The position numbers and the translations under genes are program-made. Under the pieces are notes generated by a model. It worked only from the letters and a program-made list of their open reading frames with translations, had not been told where the DNA came from and did not search any database. A stretch of DNA of 50,443 bases from Prevotella sp. (GTDB taxonomy: Bacteria; Bacteroidota; Bacteroidia; Bacteroidales; Bacteroidaceae): assembly GCA_017483805.1 (NCBI GenBank), contig JAFUUL010000005.1, positions 1 to 50,443 on the forward strand. Direction: 5' to 3'. This document shows, in pieces, positions 32,749 to 42,034 of the stretch (the first letter of the stretch is position 1; every line of letters begins with the position of its first letter).

Positions 32749-33273
32749 CTACCTCTTCTCCTTTGCTTGCCTTGCAAATTCAAACAGCGACTGGGGCAGA
32801 TGACAATAGCCCGTTGGGTTCTTGTCGAGATAGTCCTGGTGATACTCTTCGGCTGTGTAGTAGTTTTCCAGTGGCAACTTTTCTACGGCCAAAGGCTCTT
32901 GATAGTCCTTCTGCACCTCACCATACACCTTCTCGATGACGTGCAGATCCTCGGCATTGGTATAGTAGATGCCGGTACGATAGCGGGTGCCTTCGTCGTG
33001 TCCCTGCTTGTTGAGGCTTGTCGGGTCGATGGCCTTGAAGAACATCTGCAGCAGAAATTCCAGGCTCACCACATCAGGATTGTACTTCACGTGCACCGTC
33101 TCTGCATATCCGGTCGTATCGGTATAGACCTCTTTGTACGTAGGATTTGCAGTATGTCCGTTGGCAAATCCCACCGATGTTTCCACTACACCCTCAATCT
33201 GCTTGAAGTAGTGCTCTGCCCCCCAGAAACAGCCTCCAGCAAGATAGATTTCCTTATTCTTTGCTTGTTCCAT
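32749..33273 (-). CDS. msrA: peptide-methionine (S)-S-oxide reductase MsrA
   Basis: A 174-residue cytoplasmic repair enzyme that reduces methionine S-sulfoxide in proteins. The catalytic motif AGGCFWGAEHYF places the active Cys at residue 15. GVVETSVGFANGHTANPTYKEV and YAETVHVKYNPD are conserved. There is no MsrB fusion and no signal peptide. It has its own promoter (33332-33339). Confidence 0.95.
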   Translation of the reverse strand: MEQAKNKEIYLAGGCFWGAEHYFKQIEGVVETSVGFANGHTANPTYKEVYTDTTGYAETVHVKYNPDVVSLEFLLQMFFKAIDPTSLNKQGHDEGTRYRTGIYYTNAEDLHVIEKVYGEVQKDYQEPLAVEKLPLENYYTAEEYHQDYLDKNPTGYCHLPQSLFEFARQAKEKR

Positions 33274-33339: not shown

Positions 33340-33406
33340 TCATTTTCGCTCAAATTCCGTCATTTTTGCATTCATAATTAACTATTAATAGGACATTTTG
33401 GCCGAG

Positions 33407-33422
33407 CAGTGTTGCAACACTG
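33407..33422. promoter_or_regulatory. 16-bp perfect palindrome
   Basis: CAGTGTTGCAACACTG lies about 125 bases upstream of the glycan-cassette start site and 70 from the msrA promoter. It looks like a dimeric regulator site. No gene is seen between 33340 and 33546. Confidence 0.4.
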
Positions 33423-33546
33423 GCTACCATGACTTTTCAGAAACCTGAGACGCTCAGTCTTTCCCCATGTCAGAAGGAAAAAGGCGTGTTGGGAAAAGAT
33501 TGTGCAGTTTTTTAGGCAAAAACGTACAGGAATGAAGATTTTTTTG

Positions 33547-33554
33547 TACCTTTG
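33547..33554 (+). promoter_or_regulatory. -7 box of glycan cassette
   Basis: TACCTTTG followed by CACC on the plus strand matches the consensus. Transcription should start near 33560, about 400 bases before the first large gene. Confidence 0.75.
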
Positions 33555-33559
33555 CACCT

Positions 33560-33959
33560 GCTCACTCATGCCGAGCCGACTTTGCAAGAGGTCGGATCGG
33601 CTACATGGAGGGAGCACTACATTTTGGAATGCGTCGCTGACGCTTTGTTTTTGGCAACCTTGAACCTAGGAAATTCAAACGTACAGTTCAAAGACATTGC
33701 AGAGGTTGGTGCTACGGGTAGGTATATACCGCCCCGTTAGCGTGCAGAGGGCTAACCATGTCCTCACGCACGCTTTACGGGTGTACATATATACCAACGG
33801 CGTGGGTGTCACTCTGTCTGTTCTTCTGTACAGGTTTCCTAGGACCTAAGGTGGCGGACAGGCAGCAGCCAGATACCCCGCTTTTCTTTTGTAGGAATTG
33901 GAACATTATCAACAACTTCTGGTAAAAGGGTGTCGGCCAGAGACATTTGTCTATGTAAA
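33560..33959 (+). ncRNA. structured 5' leader RNA of the glycan cassette
   Basis: The leader of about 400 nt has several paired elements. (a) GCCGAGCCGAC (33570-33580) pairs with GTCGGATCGGC (33591-33601), with one mismatch. (b) GCGTC-GCT-GACGC (33631-33643) plus TTTGTTTTT forms a terminator-like hairpin. (c) A closing helix pairs CCTAGGAAA (33665-33673) with TTTCCTAGG (33835-33843) and GTACAG (33681-33686) with CTGTAC (33826-33831). (d) Inside it, a long arm pairs GGTATATA (33721) with TATATACC (33788), CCCGT (33733) with ACGGG (33777) and AGCGTGC (33739) with GCACGCT (33768). GTTAGC (33736) / GCTAAC (33751) is an alternative to part of (d). I do not recognise the family. Confidence 0.6.
33568..33663 (+). 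CDS. putative 31-aa leader peptide
   Basis: ATG 33568, about 8 nt after the predicted transcript start, opens a frame of 31 codons (begins MPSRLCKRSDRLHGG, ends TLCFWQP) with two Trp and two Cys. Its translation would run through hairpins (a) and (b) of the leader and end at 33663, immediately before the closing helix of the structured domain. The placement fits ribosome-controlled attenuation, but there is no Shine-Dalgarno and coding is unproven. Confidence 0.3.
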   Translation: MPSRLCKRSDRLHGGSTTFWNASLTLCFWQP

Positions 33960-35087
33960 ATGGCTAGGACAAAGGTGTTGGAGGTTATACGACAAGGACA
34001 AATCGGCGGGGGAGAATCGCATCTTGCTGATTTGATAGAGTTGATGGACAAGACAGACTACGAACCTGTCTGTTTGTCCTTTACCGACGGTGAGATGATG
34101 AACCGTTTAAGGGTCAATGGCGTGAAATGCTATATCATAAAAACAACGAAGCCTTTCAATGTTTCCATTCAGCGCCGTATCATTCAAATCATCAAGGACG
34201 AGAGTGTCACCATCATTCATGCTCATGGCACAAGGGCGGCTTCCAACGTCCTTTATCCATCGAGGCACCTTGGCCTGCCACTTGTATATACCGTTCATGG
34301 CTGGAGTTTCCATGATGACCAGGGAAAACTCACTTACACGCTGCGCAGATGGAGCGAGAAACTAATCTGCCATTACGCTACACGAGTCATCTGCGTGTCA
34401 GAAGGAAATGCCGAAACGGGAAGGAAAGCCTTCGGACTGAAGAATCCAATAGTCATTAAGAATGGTGTGAACCTGAACACGTTCAATCGGGATAAGAAGT
34501 CACCATTGCAGAGAAGTGACTTTGGCTTTTCCGACTCAGACTTCGTAGTGGGGTTCATTGCACGTTGTACCAAACAGAAGGCTCCACTTGACTATCTGGA
34601 AGCAGTAAGACTTGCACATCAATCCGTCTCAAGCGTAAAAGGCATGTTTATCGGTGAGGGTGATATGGACACAGAGGTTGATAAATACATCTCCGCCTAC
34701 CAAATGGAGTCGTATGTCTATAGGAGCCCGTTCCGTACCGATGTGGCTGACATTCTACCTTTAATAGATGTCTATTGCCTTCCAAGCATATGGGAAGGAC
34801 TCTCTATCGGGTTGCTTGAAGCGATGGCTTCTGGATGTGCCATTATAGCGACACCAACGGATGGCACACAAGAAATCATTAGGGACGAGCAGAATGGGCT
34901 CATTGTTCCATTCAACTCCCCAAACAAAACCTGTGATGCCATTCTACGCTTGGTGAATGACGAGAAGTTGCGAAACAGATGTCGGCAGAATGCAGTCTGC
35001 CTTGTTGCAGAACAATTTAACGCTCAAAGAGTGGCAGACGCTGTAGTTGACATATACAAGAACATCTTCTACAACGACAATCAGTGA
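33960..35087 (+). CDS. GT4-type glycosyltransferase
   Basis: A 375-residue cytoplasmic or membrane-associated GT-B glycosyltransferase that should transfer a sugar from a nucleotide donor to a glycan or lipid acceptor. The N-terminal domain opens VLEVIRQGQIGGGESHLADL, with the Gly-rich acceptor-side loop. The C-terminal domain has SDFVVGFIARCTKQKAPL (about 196-213) and the GT4 donor-binding motif LPSIWEGLSIGLLEAMASG (about 276-294). ATG 33960 is preferred to a GTG at 33930. Base composition is visibly more AT-rich than the flanks, as in the next two genes, which suggests horizontal transfer of the cassette. The stop is 7 bases before the acyltransferase. Confidence 0.88.
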   Translation: MARTKVLEVIRQGQIGGGESHLADLIELMDKTDYEPVCLSFTDGEMMNRLRVNGVKCYIIKTTKPFNVSIQRRIIQIIKDESVTIIHAHGTRAASNVLYPSRHLGLPLVYTVHGWSFHDDQGKLTYTLRRWSEKLICHYATRVICVSEGNAETGRKAFGLKNPIVIKNGVNLNTFNRDKKSPLQRSDFGFSDSDFVVGFIARCTKQKAPLDYLEAVRLAHQSVSSVKGMFIGEGDMDTEVDKYISAYQMESYVYRSPFRTDVADILPLIDVYCLPSIWEGLSIGLLEAMASGCAIIATPTDGTQEIIRDEQNGLIVPFNSPNKTCDAILRLVNDEKLRNRCRQNAVCLVAEQFNAQRVADAVVDIYKNIFYNDNQ

Positions 35088-35094
35088 TATTTGT

Positions 35095-36153
35095 ATGAGT
35101 GACGAGACATTAAGTATTGTTGAAAAGCATAGGCTATCCGAGACGATTACATTTCTTCGCTTTCCGTTGACGATGATTATTGTCATGTACCACTGCTATT
35201 GTGTGCAGACACCAAATAACCAACCTTTATATGCTGCTGTCACCTATCCCTTTGGATTGATGATAGGTGAGACAGGAGTACCTGCATTTTTCTTCATCTC
35301 AGGATTCCTGTTCTTCTTTAGCCAGCGAAAGTATAGCCAGAAATTACGAACAAGGTTGAATACGCTGCTTGTTCCATATCTAATTTGGAATGCCGTGGTA
35401 TTGCTTGGATACATCGCTTTGATGGTTGTCGGGCATCCCTTGCAAATTGCGGACAAGAACATCTTAGACTTTCAGTTTATCGACTATATAAGAGCATTTG
35501 TAGACCGAGGGCAATGGGAGCACGGGAACGGGCAACCACTGCTTTGTCCCTACTGGTATATAAGGAATTTGATAGTACTGTCATTGGCAGCACCGCTAAT
35601 TGGTATTGCTATGAAGGGAAGAAAGGCACTTGCTATCCTTTTCACATTGTTGATATGGTGGCTGTCCTTGCCATACAACGGAATGATTGCCCAGTCTTTA
35701 CTGTTCTTCAGCATGGGGAGTCTATTTTCTGTCAACAAGATTAGTCCTTTGGCACTCACAAAAGGCAGGACAGGACACATCATTATAATGCTCTGGTGTC
35801 TGGCTGTTGTGTATGACTGGCTGTCGCATTTCTGTTGTCCTATATGGGGTAGCCTTTATGTGCACAGGCTTGTACTGATACTCAACATCTTCATGCTCTT
35901 TTACGTTGGCAGTCATATTTTCATGAAATATAAGATGCCGGAAATACTGACGAAATCGAGTTTCTGGATTTACACCACCCATTATCCTCTAACCTTACTC
36001 ATTCGCTCTGCTCATCCGCAACTTGGCGACTGGGTACAAGTCGTGTTTTACTGGACGAGCGTTTTTGTCATCACCTTAGTCTGTCTTGCTTCCTTTTGGC
36101 TTGGCCGTCGCCTATCACCCAAAGTTATGAACGTCTTAACAGGTAACAGATGA
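35095..36153 (+). CDS. acyltransferase 3 family membrane protein
   Basis: A 352-residue polytopic inner-membrane acyltransferase, likely to O-acetylate a sugar of an exported glycan. About ten hydrophobic segments are visible. The family landmark R-x10-H is present near the N-terminus (RFPLTMIIVMYHCYC), followed by FFFISGFLFFFS, typical of the Acyl_transf_3/OafA group. ATG 35095 (MSDETLSIVEKHRLSE) is used; the frame stays open upstream inside the glycosyltransferase. Its stop overlaps the next gene (ATGA). Confidence 0.85.
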   Translation: MSDETLSIVEKHRLSETITFLRFPLTMIIVMYHCYCVQTPNNQPLYAAVTYPFGLMIGETGVPAFFFISGFLFFFSQRKYSQKLRTRLNTLLVPYLIWNAVVLLGYIALMVVGHPLQIADKNILDFQFIDYIRAFVDRGQWEHGNGQPLLCPYWYIRNLIVLSLAAPLIGIAMKGRKALAILFTLLIWWLSLPYNGMIAQSLLFFSMGSLFSVNKISPLALTKGRTGHIIIMLWCLAVVYDWLSHFCCPIWGSLYVHRLVLILNIFMLFYVGSHIFMKYKMPEILTKSSFWIYTTHYPLTLLIRSAHPQLGDWVQVVFYWTSVFVITLVCLASFWLGRRLSPKVMNVLTGNR

Positions 36154-36959
36154 AAATATCACTAAATAAAGGAGTTCTCGTAGCAATGATTATGGCATTG
36201 ATAGTAATTGGAGGTGAAATGCTGATCTCTATATACCAATACTATCAACCGGCACAAGTCCATCCGATCTACCGCATCCCGGCCAAACAAAGTGATGACA
36301 CTCTGCGAGTGCTATTTATAGGCGATAGTTGGGCAGCGTATCATCAAGTACATGACAGTATCTTAGCCATGATGTTATCGTCAAGCATATACAAGCCCTG
36401 CGTGGTGAAATCTATAGGCAATGTAGGCGCTAAAAGCAAAGAAGTGTACGAAAGATTATTTTCAAGTACAAAGCCATTTATTCTGGAACATCCCGACTAT
36501 TGCATCATATCTGCAGGAATCAATGATGCCGTTGCCAAGATGGGAGTAGATTATTATACTTCAAATTACATGAACCTTTTAGACTTTCTGATTTCACAGG
36601 AAATAGTTCCTATAGTATTAGACATACCTGATGTGGACTATTATGCAGTGTTTAGCCGCGAGACACTTGTCGAGAAGTTTCGTCACAGAATGTCAGCGGT
36701 CGTTAATAGTGTCGGGGATTTCTCTTTCCTAACTTACAGAAAGGCACTAACTGACAAACTTGAATCATCGGAAAAAGGCGATAGTATCATCTATATTAAA
36801 GCGAGTAAATGGATTTCATCTGGTACAAAGTACTTTCTTGAAGATGGCATTCATTTGAACGATAAAGGTTATCAATTACTGGACTCTTGTCTTTCTGATC
36901 AGATTCGGATAAGCATACAGAAACAGCATGCACCTTACGCACCTCAGGCACCCGTTTAA
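36150..36959 (+). CDS. membrane-anchored SGNH/GDSL hydrolase
   Basis: A 269-residue protein with an N-terminal signal anchor (about 8-30) and an outward SGNH hydrolase domain. The nucleophile motif is FIGDSW (S60), block III is ISAGINDA (about 122-129) and the catalytic Asp/His are D232 and H235 in DGIHLND. Such enzymes often add or remove O-acetyl groups on glycans, and the partner acyltransferase overlaps it by 4 bases, so the pair probably works together. The C-terminus HAPYAPQAPV comes from a GCACC-type repeat that reappears inverted at about 37155-37175. Confidence 0.85.
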   Translation: MKISLNKGVLVAMIMALIVIGGEMLISIYQYYQPAQVHPIYRIPAKQSDDTLRVLFIGDSWAAYHQVHDSILAMMLSSSIYKPCVVKSIGNVGAKSKEVYERLFSSTKPFILEHPDYCIISAGINDAVAKMGVDYYTSNYMNLLDFLISQEIVPIVLDIPDVDYYAVFSRETLVEKFRHRMSAVVNSVGDFSFLTYRKALTDKLESSEKGDSIIYIKASKWISSGTKYFLEDGIHLNDKGYQLLDSCLSDQIRISIQKQHAPYAPQAPV

Positions 36960-41608: not shown

Positions 41609-41681
41609 AGCGGAAAACGGGACTCGGACCCGCGACCCCAACCTTGGCAAGGTTGTGCTCTACCAACTGAGCTATTTCCGC
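41609..41681 (-). tRNA. tRNA-Gly (anticodon GCC), copy 2
   Basis: Acceptor GCGGAAA/TTTCCGC, D stem GCTC/GAGC, anticodon stem CAACC/GGTTG around TTGCCAA (anticodon GCC), T arm GCGGG-TCCGAGT-CCCGT. CCA is not encoded; a T run follows. The sequence is identical to the copy at 41962-42034. Confidence 0.95.
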
Positions 41682-41709
41682 GATTCTTATGCGTGTTGGA
41701 GATACAAAA

Positions 41710-41796
41710 TGGTGAAGAGGAGGAGACTCGAACTCCCACGTCGCAATTGACACTACCCCCTCAAAGTAGCGCGTCTACCAATTCCGCCACCTCTCC
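41710..41796 (-). tRNA. tRNA-Leu (anticodon GAG)
   Basis: Class II tRNA with long variable arm. Acceptor GGAGAGG/CCTCTTC, anticodon stem CTACT/GGTAG around TTGAGGG (anticodon GAG), T arm GGGAG-TTCGAGT-CTCCT. The 3' CCA is encoded. Confidence 0.93.
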
Positions 41797-41832
41797 AACA
41801 TGTTACTTTGTTTACACATTGATCAAAAAGAG

Positions 41833-41914
41833 TGCCCAGAACAGGACTCGAACCTGCACGCCTCGCGGCACACGCACCTGAAACGTGCGCGTCTACCAAT
41901 TCCGCCACCTGGGC
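41833..41914 (-). tRNA. tRNA-Leu (anticodon CAG)
   Basis: Class II tRNA with long variable arm. Acceptor GCCCAGG/TCTGGGC, anticodon stem CACGT/GCGTG around TTCAGGT (anticodon CAG), T arm GCAGG-TTCGAGT-CCTGT. CCA is not encoded. Confidence 0.93.
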
Positions 41915-41961
41915 ATTTACGATTAAGGCCTTCCTTAATCTCTCTTTTTGTTCAATCTGTG

Positions 41962-42034
41962 AGCGGAAAACGGGACTCGGACCCGCGACCCCAACCTTGG
42001 CAAGGTTGTGCTCTACCAACTGAGCTATTTCCGC
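41962..42034 (-). tRNA. tRNA-Gly (anticodon GCC), copy 1
   Basis: First tRNA after the promoter. Same 73-base sequence and fold as the copy at 41609-41681, with anticodon GCC and no encoded CCA. Confidence 0.95.

What the first reader, a model, noticed from the sequence alone, without database searches (positions are those of the whole stretch)
33547..33959. Highly structured 400-nt leader RNA controls a glycan cassette
Seen: a consensus promoter is followed by two early hairpins (the second terminator-like, GCGTC-GCT-GACGC with TTTGTTTTT), then a domain closed by two helices 140-180 bases apart (CCTAGGAAA/TTTCCTAGG and GTACAG/CTGTAC). The domain encloses a three-part long arm and a competing hairpin (33736-33756). 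Known: Bacteroides capsule loci are controlled in their long 5' leaders by UpxY antitermination. Inference: this is an attenuator or riboswitch-like element for surface glycan expression. No UpxY gene is present here, so an RNA-only or ribosome-driven mechanism is possible.
Basis: partly seen in the sequence, partly recalled or inferred. Interest (0 to 1): 0.78.

Follow-up and report, generated by a model that had tools for sequence, protein, structure and literature searches.

The report
Widespread Bacteroidales attenuator leader RNA
Before a sugar-coat gene cassette lies a roughly 390-base RNA switch, not in the Rfam catalogue, whose relatives sit in front of sugar-coat, DNA-restriction and surface-protein genes in many gut and rumen bacteria and look built to stop or allow their transcription.

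Summary
The leader at 33547-33959 is real and strongly structured (z = -5.2). It belongs to a large RNA family that reaches no Rfam gathering score: blastn finds it in 74 of 200 genomes of the genus, a covariance model in 199 of 399 of the family, some weakly.

Sixty-three aligned copies share one plan: a Bacteroidetes-type promoter (62/63; controls 5/63, 5/59), an early hairpin before a U-rich tract (62/63), and a long-range hairpin ending in a U-rich tract (61/63) before the first gene. Best reading: a transcription attenuator, trigger unknown.

Cargo is not only glycan genes: 14 of 50 scanned first genes are DNA methyltransferases, and all 7 loci of one RNA branch begin with an UpxY-like gene. 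RNA lineages cluster by cargo.

The attenuator idea is supported; "glycan control" is too narrow; the competing hairpin near 33736 is not conserved. Nothing was tested at the bench.

The parts
33547..33554 (+). Bacteroidetes-type -7 box TACCTTTG of the leader's own promoter
   Evidence: sequence; motif present upstream of 62/63 homologues, controls 5/63 and 5/59
33559..33616 (+). 5' hairpin H1 (TGCTC...GAGCA), variable in sequence between homologues
   Evidence: fold; alignment; not tested for covariation
33616..33621 (+). 5' strand of long-range helix Z (ACTACA), pairs with 33890-33895
   Evidence: covariation score 0.195 vs 0.096 shuffled, 0/500; in the window 5 of the 6 positions pair (33616 faces G33895)
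33631..33653 (+). early terminator-like hairpin H2 (GCGTC-GCT-GACGC) and U-rich tract TTTGTTTTTG
   Evidence: 62/63 homologues; the tract can re-pair with CAAAGAC 33689-33695
33657..33686 (+). region A (a1 ACCTTG, a2 CCTAGGAAA, a4 GTACAG): 5' strands of the domain-closing helices; also a local hairpin TTGAA/TTCAA
33699..33704 (+). antiterminator strand x (GCAGAG), pairs with CTCTGT of the terminator 5' arm
   Evidence: 93% of cells paired but mostly invariant; extra test with divergent loci weak
33712..33716 (+). antiterminator strand y (CTACG), pairs with CGTGG 33801-33805
   Evidence: 82% of cells paired
33721..33795 (+). central long arm P1-P4, shared by both states
   Evidence: covariation; P3 99% paired
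33799..33823 (+). terminator 5' arm t1
33826..33852 (+). region B, apical part of the terminator hairpin and 3' strands of the domain-closing helices
33856..33890 (+). terminator 3' arm t2 and U-rich tract TTTTCTTTT
   Evidence: t1:t2 helices 83% and 96% paired with covariation; at least 7 T in 9 nt in 61/63, background 2.3%
33890..33895 (+). 3' strand of helix Z (TGTAGG), made only after read-through
33918..33941 (+). hairpin C just before the likely start codon; its loop GGGTGTC is complementary to GATACCC of t2
   Evidence: covariation score 0.258 vs 0.196 shuffled, 0/500
33930..35087 (+). first cargo gene, family-4/group-1 glycosyltransferase (likely start ATG 33960, inferred)
   Evidence: PF13439, PF00534
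35047..36153 (+). acyltransferase (Acyl_transf_3)
   Evidence: PF01757
36150..36959 (+). GDSL/SGNH-like esterase
   Evidence: PF13472

Best explanation
A conserved transcription-attenuator leader. RNA polymerase starts at the leader's own promoter and makes a structured RNA of about 330 nt (start site inferred from the promoter). Near its end the RNA can fold in two exclusive ways. In the OFF fold, t1 (33799-33823) pairs with t2 (33856-33882); this long hairpin is followed by a U-rich tract, and transcription stops before the first gene. In the ON fold, an earlier segment (33657-33716) pairs with region B and with t1 itself, so t1 cannot reach t2 and transcription continues into the cassette. 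After read-through, helix Z and hairpin C (whose loop is complementary to t2) could lock the ON fold and sit just before the start codon. An earlier U-rich hairpin (33631-33653) may give a first exit point. Shown from sequence: the promoter motif, the two exclusive folds with covariation, the U-rich tracts and their conservation. Inferred: that the hairpins terminate, that the fold choice is regulated, and what triggers it. The same switch is used as a module in front of different cargo.
For: Both folds covary on 63 aligned copies: terminator state 86.2% of cells paired, 258 double-changed cells against 87.8 shuffled; antiterminator state 81.2%, 360 against 139.5; covariation scores reached by 0/500 shuffles. 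The two states share t1, so they cannot both form. U-rich tract after t2 in 61/63 (background 2.3%) and promoter motif in 62/63. Predicted energies are often close: median antiterminator minus terminator -4.5 kcal/mol over 63 loci, window +3.1. A same-strand gene run follows the element in 55 of 58 fetched loci. UpxY-like genes, whose products are reported to prevent premature termination in 5' leaders (passages of PMC7819879 and PMC7315117), follow one RNA branch in 7 of 7 loci.
Against: No transcript data. The x:t1 pairing is nearly invariant, and a matched/mismatched test on 15 loci (9 divergent) was weak (WC pairs: 82/5000 permutations as high; WC+GU: 2290/5000). The t1:t2 hairpin encloses about 30 nt and is longer than textbook terminators; the pattern scan, which allows loops of 3-8 nt, did not call it. 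The energy comparison used a crude helix choice in some loci and the spread is wide (-21.5 to +24.4). Helix Z and hairpin C lie beyond the U-rich tract, so part of the conserved structure is not needed for attenuation. In 3 of 58 loci gene calling found no same-strand run; two of these (L058, L095) have an UpxY-like ORF on inspection, for L072 none of 60 aa was seen in 1500 nt. Shuffle controls do not remove relatedness of the copies.
Confidence: 0.72

Rival explanations
1. UpxY-type control: a NusG-paralogue antiterminator (encoded as first gene in some loci, elsewhere in the genome for others) loads on this leader and carries polymerase past the terminator. This names a trigger for the attenuator rather than replacing it.
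For: One RNA branch is followed by an UpxY-family gene in 7/7 loci; UpxY is the best NCBIfam match in all 7, one above the cut-off. 4 of 20 UpxY upstream regions taken from high in the list carry the RNA; one of the four (L253) was picked because a model hit beside it was already known, so 3 of 19 is the fairer count. UpxY is reported to act in 5' leaders (passages).
Against: The first gene is UpxY-like in only 7 of 63 loci. 16 of 20 UpxY upstream regions lack the RNA at E<1e-3. 19 of the 20 genomes listed without a match were searched and 19 of 19 have UpxY-profile matches, though that profile also hits core NusG and one of them (G522) proved to hold a weak copy of the RNA. The own genome gave one weak UpxY match (21.5 bits) and none with another query, but core NusG was also not found there, so this is uninformative.
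Confidence: 0.3
2. Riboswitch: the conserved core (ACTACATA, GCAGAGGT, P1-P4 arm) binds a small molecule, which sets the choice between the folds.
For: Highly conserved stretches beside variable helices and a shared central arm; two-state anatomy.
Against: Cargo shares no evident pathway (methyltransferases, glycosyltransferases, secreted proteins, UpxY, Hxs peptide system), unusual for metabolite riboswitches, though alarmone-type ligands remain possible. No Rfam riboswitch match.
Confidence: 0.25
3. Processive antitermination RNA (EAR/put-like): the RNA modifies polymerase so that it reads long operons.
For: Some copies are followed by many same-strand genes (L054: 10).
Against: Same-strand runs are short: median 2.5 genes over 58 loci, some cut by contig ends or the 10-kb limit; several cargos are one gene followed by an opposite-strand gene. 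Covariation supports a terminator inside the RNA itself.
Confidence: 0.08
4. Free-standing structured small RNA whose gene happens to precede cargo genes.
For: Own promoter motif and an end that would release an RNA of about 330 nt.
Against: Consistent same-strand placement before a gene: 25 of 86 C5-methyltransferase matches in 34 RNA-positive genomes have it within 1.5 kb upstream on the same strand, and none of the 86 has it on another side or strand within that distance. RNA lineages cluster by cargo class. Conserved structure runs on past the U-rich tract to near the start codon.
Confidence: 0.1

Closest known systems
5' leaders of Bacteroides capsule loci controlled by UpxY antiterminators
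   Same: Own promoter, long leader, premature termination in the leader (as reported), surface-glycan cargo; UpxY-like gene first in 7/7 loci of one RNA branch here and the RNA found in 4/20 UpxY upstream regions (one preselected)
   Different: Most copies have no UpxY gene first and carry other cargo; no 11-nt inverted repeats flank the promoters (0 of 60 loci), whereas Bacteroides capsule promoters are described as invertible (passages of PMC12632263). The original B. fragilis leaders could not be compared (paper not held).
Transcription-attenuating riboswitches and protein-dependent attenuators in general
   Same: Two exclusive folds, terminator and antiterminator, in a leader
   Different: Cargo has no shared pathway; ligand or protein unknown; not an Rfam family
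EAR / put processive antitermination RNAs (recalled)
   Same: Structured leader RNA in front of polysaccharide operons
   Different: Short cargo runs, terminator inside the RNA; no Rfam match
D12-methyl and other orphan candidate structured RNAs (recalled)
   Same: A structured RNA upstream of DNA methyltransferase genes
   Different: No Rfam family reached E<=1 on the Dam-linked copies L026 and L030. The candidate list of PMC8040213 was seen only as passages of the main text; its tables were not available.

Membership tests
Any Rfam 15 family | Score at or above a family's gathering threshold | tested here: not met
   Six tRNAs elsewhere in the window only; with E<=10 on 33400-34100 the best hit is 22.3 bits against a threshold of 37, on the other strand; 13 homologous loci: one tRNA and one hit far below threshold
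Transcription attenuator leader | Two mutually exclusive conserved folds, one terminator-like | tested here: met
   U-rich tract 61/63
Transcription attenuator leader | Regulated premature termination in cells | not testable with these tools
   No transcript data held
UpxY-controlled capsule leader | upxY as first gene of the operon | tested here: not met
   Window: first gene is a glycosyltransferase. Met in 7/7 loci of the UUCACGC/AUCACGC-type branch
UpxY-controlled capsule leader | Invertible promoter (common, not universal) | tested here: not met
   0 of 60 loci have a perfect 11-nt inverted repeat flanking the promoter; none in the window. Imperfect repeats not tested in the other loci
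Metabolite riboswitch | Specific ligand binding | not testable with these tools
   No binding assay
Leader-peptide attenuator | Conserved short ORF in the leader | tested here: inconclusive
   No ATG column in more than 25 of 63 aligned copies; the alignment starts at 33610, so H1 was not covered, nor were GTG/TTG starts
Processive antitermination RNA (EAR/put) | Fronts long operons / acts on downstream terminators | tested here: inconclusive
   Median run 2.5 same-strand genes over 58 loci; action on terminators not tested
Phage- or plasmid-borne element | Presence in phage, virus or plasmid collections | tested here: not met
   No blastn match in phages or plasmids at E<=1e-5; 0 of 18 pattern-matched viral contigs confirmed by the model

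The most novel reading that the evidence does not exclude
One RNA switch class, answering to a common signal (for instance a NusG-paralogue level or a stress/phage cue), coordinates a whole regulon of variable surface and defence genes across Bacteroidales: coat glycans, secreted proteins and restriction-modification systems are turned on by attenuation relief rather than by DNA inversion, with RNA subtypes matched to cargo.
Probability: 0.28. Interest if true: 0.86.

Novelty: new variant of a known kind. Interest (0 to 1): 0.73.

Why it matters
If right, a large class of RNA switches that is not listed in Rfam sits in front of many variable genes in abundant gut and rumen bacteria. It would link surface-coat control and restriction-modification control by one mechanism, and would make the question of how Bacteroidales choose which coat and defence genes to express testable with simple leader reporters. 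It may also give UpxY-type antiterminators a defined RNA partner.

Tried and rejected
Kissing-loop reading of CCTAGGAAA/TTTCCTAGG: first considered because both strands also lie in small local hairpins. Dropped as the main model when the flanking pairs (a1:b5, a4:b1) were found to be nested with it in one domain-closing helix. The local hairpin around a2 does covary (helix 2), so a kissing intermediate is not excluded.

Processive antitermination, because of capsule operons: weakened by short cargo runs. Invertible promoters: none found. Leader peptide: no conserved ATG in the part tested. Mobile element or phage RNA: no hits. Rfam families: none at threshold.

Hits under about 35 bits were not trusted: mirror-strand hits of the hairpins reach 35 bits. 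The 46 of 393 genomes is therefore an upper count, and so is the 199 of 399, of which about 148 (counted by hand) have a best E of 1e-9 or lower.

Three-strand covariation of x, t1 and t2 in divergent loci was tried as a strict test and came out weak; in one locus (L079) the script placed t1 wrongly.

Rows dropped: alignment A4 holds 63 copies: the window, 51 of the 60 loci L040-L099 and 11 from the first blast set. Left out of L040-L099: L046 (contig ends 84 nt after the core), L092 (no model hit; the truncated copy also seen as L021), L076 (near copy of L075) and L070, L071, L072, L077, L078, L099 (divergent). From the first blast set L021 (truncated), L023 (divergent) and copies of loci fetched again were left out. 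Cargo runs cover the window and 57 of the 60 loci (not L046, L092, L099). Pfam scans of first genes cover 50 loci, 15 of them without a Pfam match; L049, L082, L088, L090 and L091 had a first ORF but were not in these five calls. Cargo classes rest partly on reading the sequences, and L097 is counted as restriction-modification although a short ORF precedes its methyltransferase. Subtype patterns were written after seeing the sequences, and the tree includes the terminator arms. The 34 genomes were chosen because they carry the RNA. The 20 UpxY regions were taken from high in the list, not at random; L253 was chosen knowing of a model hit, and one gene with a known element 207 nt upstream (G311:C13) was not among them.

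Full report
WHAT IS THERE. The finding covers the gap between an msrA gene on the minus strand (32749-33273, PF01625) and a glycan cassette on the plus strand: a glycosyltransferase (33930-35087), an acyltransferase (35047-36153) and a GDSL-like esterase (36150-36959). A TACCTTTG box at 33547 starts the leader. The stretch 33547-33959 folds far better than shuffles (z = -5.2, 0 of 100 as good). No Rfam family reaches its threshold there; relaxed searches of the window and of 13 homologous loci gave nothing above threshold but one tRNA.

A FAMILY. blastn finds relatives in 74 of 200 genomes of the genus. A covariance model built from 28 of them (R1) finds matches at E<=0.001 in 199 of 399 genomes of the family (24 of 30 genera; about 148 genomes, counted by hand, have a best E of 1e-9 or lower) and in 46 of 393 of the order. 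Weak scores are doubtful because mirror-strand hits reach 35 bits. Phage and plasmid collections gave no match, and 0 of 18 viral contigs picked by a DNA pattern were confirmed. Of these, 65 bear names within Bacteroidales (Prevotella, Prevotellaceae, Bacteroidaceae, Alloprevotella, Paludibacteraceae, Bacteroidales), many from rumen samples, and one is labelled only uncultured bacterium. Of the 14 not confirmed, ten are from other groups (Paenibacillus, Arenibacter and others), which serves as a specificity check, and four are Prevotella or Bacteroidaceae contigs, one of them the truncated copy. The own genome holds three solid copies: the window (201 bits), one on C71 before a restriction-modification operon (a short ORF, a C5-methyltransferase, a protein with a restriction-enzyme profile and an AAA domain, and a LlaJI-like restriction enzyme) and one on C130 whose first ORF matched no Pfam or NCBIfam family and whose second is a leucine-rich-repeat protein. 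Two weaker matches (C112 36 bits, C181 24 bits) are doubtful, and a fragment (blastn, 84%) ends at a contig edge on C15.

TWO FOLDS. On 63 aligned copies (A4) two structures were counted. The terminator state (t1 33799-33823 with t2 33856-33882, plus local hairpins) has 86.2% of cells paired and 258 double-changed cells, against 87.8 in shuffles. The antiterminator state (33657-33662, 33665-33673 and 33681-33686 with region B; 33699-33704 and 33712-33716 with t1; the shared P1-P4 arm) has 81.2% and 360, against 139.5. Both covariation scores are above all 500 shuffles, and sliding the partners by 1-3 columns drops both. Relatedness can inflate such counts, as the tool warns. Because both states use t1, they exclude each other. 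A separate test that ignores the alignment gives 8.5 nt of complementarity between the two closing regions within loci and 6.1 between loci, with 0 of 2000 permutations as high (60 loci). Forced-fold energies lie close in many loci: median -4.5 kcal/mol in favour of the antiterminator, +3.1 in the window, range -21.5 to +24.4, antiterminator favoured in 48 of 63; the helix choice in that script was crude for some loci. The direct test of x:t1 with divergent loci was weak.

SIGNS OF TERMINATION. After t2, 61 of 63 copies have at least 7 T in 9 nt (background 2.3%). Beyond the main U-rich tract, helix Z and hairpin C, whose loop is complementary to t2, also covary. These can form only after read-through and lie close to the start codon; I infer that they lock the ON state or touch translation.

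CARGO. In 55 of 58 loci gene calling finds a same-strand run behind the RNA; median length 2.5 genes, with some runs cut by contig ends or the 10-kb limit. Of 50 first genes scanned with Pfam, 14 are DNA methyltransferases and 15 match no family; others are acyltransferases, MBOAT proteins, SGNH esterases, hexapeptide transferases, glycosyltransferases, CotH proteins and a few more. In 34 genomes chosen because they carry the RNA, 25 of 86 C5-methyltransferase matches have the element within 1.5 kb upstream on the same strand, and none has it elsewhere within that distance; 23 of 90 elements are followed by such a gene. All seven loci whose terminator arm reads UUCACGC or AUCACGC have an UpxY-family gene first (one above the NCBIfam cut-off, six below it with UpxY as best match). 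Four of 20 UpxY upstream regions taken from related genomes carry the RNA, one of them picked knowing of a model hit. RNA lineages cluster by cargo: the UpxY-linked copies form one branch (support 100) and 12 restriction-modification copies another (99); the restriction-modification label needs 6 changes against 16.6 shuffled, the glycan and secreted labels cluster only modestly (11 against 14.5, 9 against 12.0), the label 'other' not at all, and all five together need 19 against 36.4. Terminator-arm subtype and methyltransferase cargo go together in 18 of 20 against 1 of 43 loci (patterns written after seeing the data). Labels rest partly on reading by eye, and related copies are not independent.

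MECHANISM AND WHAT IS KNOWN. The anatomy is that of a transcription attenuator. In Bacteroides, UpxY proteins are reported to prevent premature termination within leaders upstream of upxY (passages of PMC7819879 and PMC7315117 seen; the original paper is not held). The present family includes leaders of UpxY-linked loci, so UpxY-type control is a good candidate trigger for some copies, but only 7 of 63 first genes are UpxY-like. No conserved ATG-started leader ORF was found (region upstream of 33610 not covered), and no perfect inverted repeats flank the promoters (0 of 60). Full-text searches (listings seen) and passages of seven papers showed no description of this family; the tables of the large human-microbiome screen PMC8040213 were not available, so prior listing of a piece is possible.

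VERDICT. The scope is wider than glycan control: this is a modular leader RNA for variable surface and defence cassettes across Bacteroidales, absent from Rfam 15, with the trigger unknown.

Noticed in passing
L080:9467-9961, L088:9467-9985, L090:9443-9937, L091:9462-9956, L049:2268-2762, L013 downstream: A small secreted protein of about 165 aa (MKKLF..FAQKEVTVKAGT...) recurs as first cargo gene in six loci. L080 had no Pfam or NCBIfam match and L049 no NCBIfam match; the others were recognised by eye and not scanned.
   Followed up: partly
L071 (G415:C1), downstream genes: A divergent copy in another genus (g3) of the family is followed by two MACPF-domain proteins with BACON domains, a kind of cargo not met in the other first genes scanned.
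   Followed up: partly
L075:2225-4008: A copy from another family of the order is followed by a His-Xaa-Ser (Hxs) peptide-modification system, HxsD and HxsB.
   Followed up: partly
L021 / L092 (G196:C100): A copy whose 5' half is 79% identical to the window and then runs into unrelated sequence, as if cut by an insertion or recombination.
   Followed up: no
L239, L242, L243, L246, L248, L249: Several of the best UpxY-family genes in the genus lie directly behind what reads like a trpG-type glutamine amidotransferase gene, without this RNA, so more than one kind of UpxY setting exists (by eye).
   Followed up: no
window 41609-42034 minus strand: Four tRNA genes in a row.
   Followed up: no
window 33747-33765 and homologues: The P4 loop is the same CUAACCAU-like sequence in many copies across subtypes but is replaced by other loops elsewhere, which hints at a tertiary contact or binding site.
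   Followed up: no
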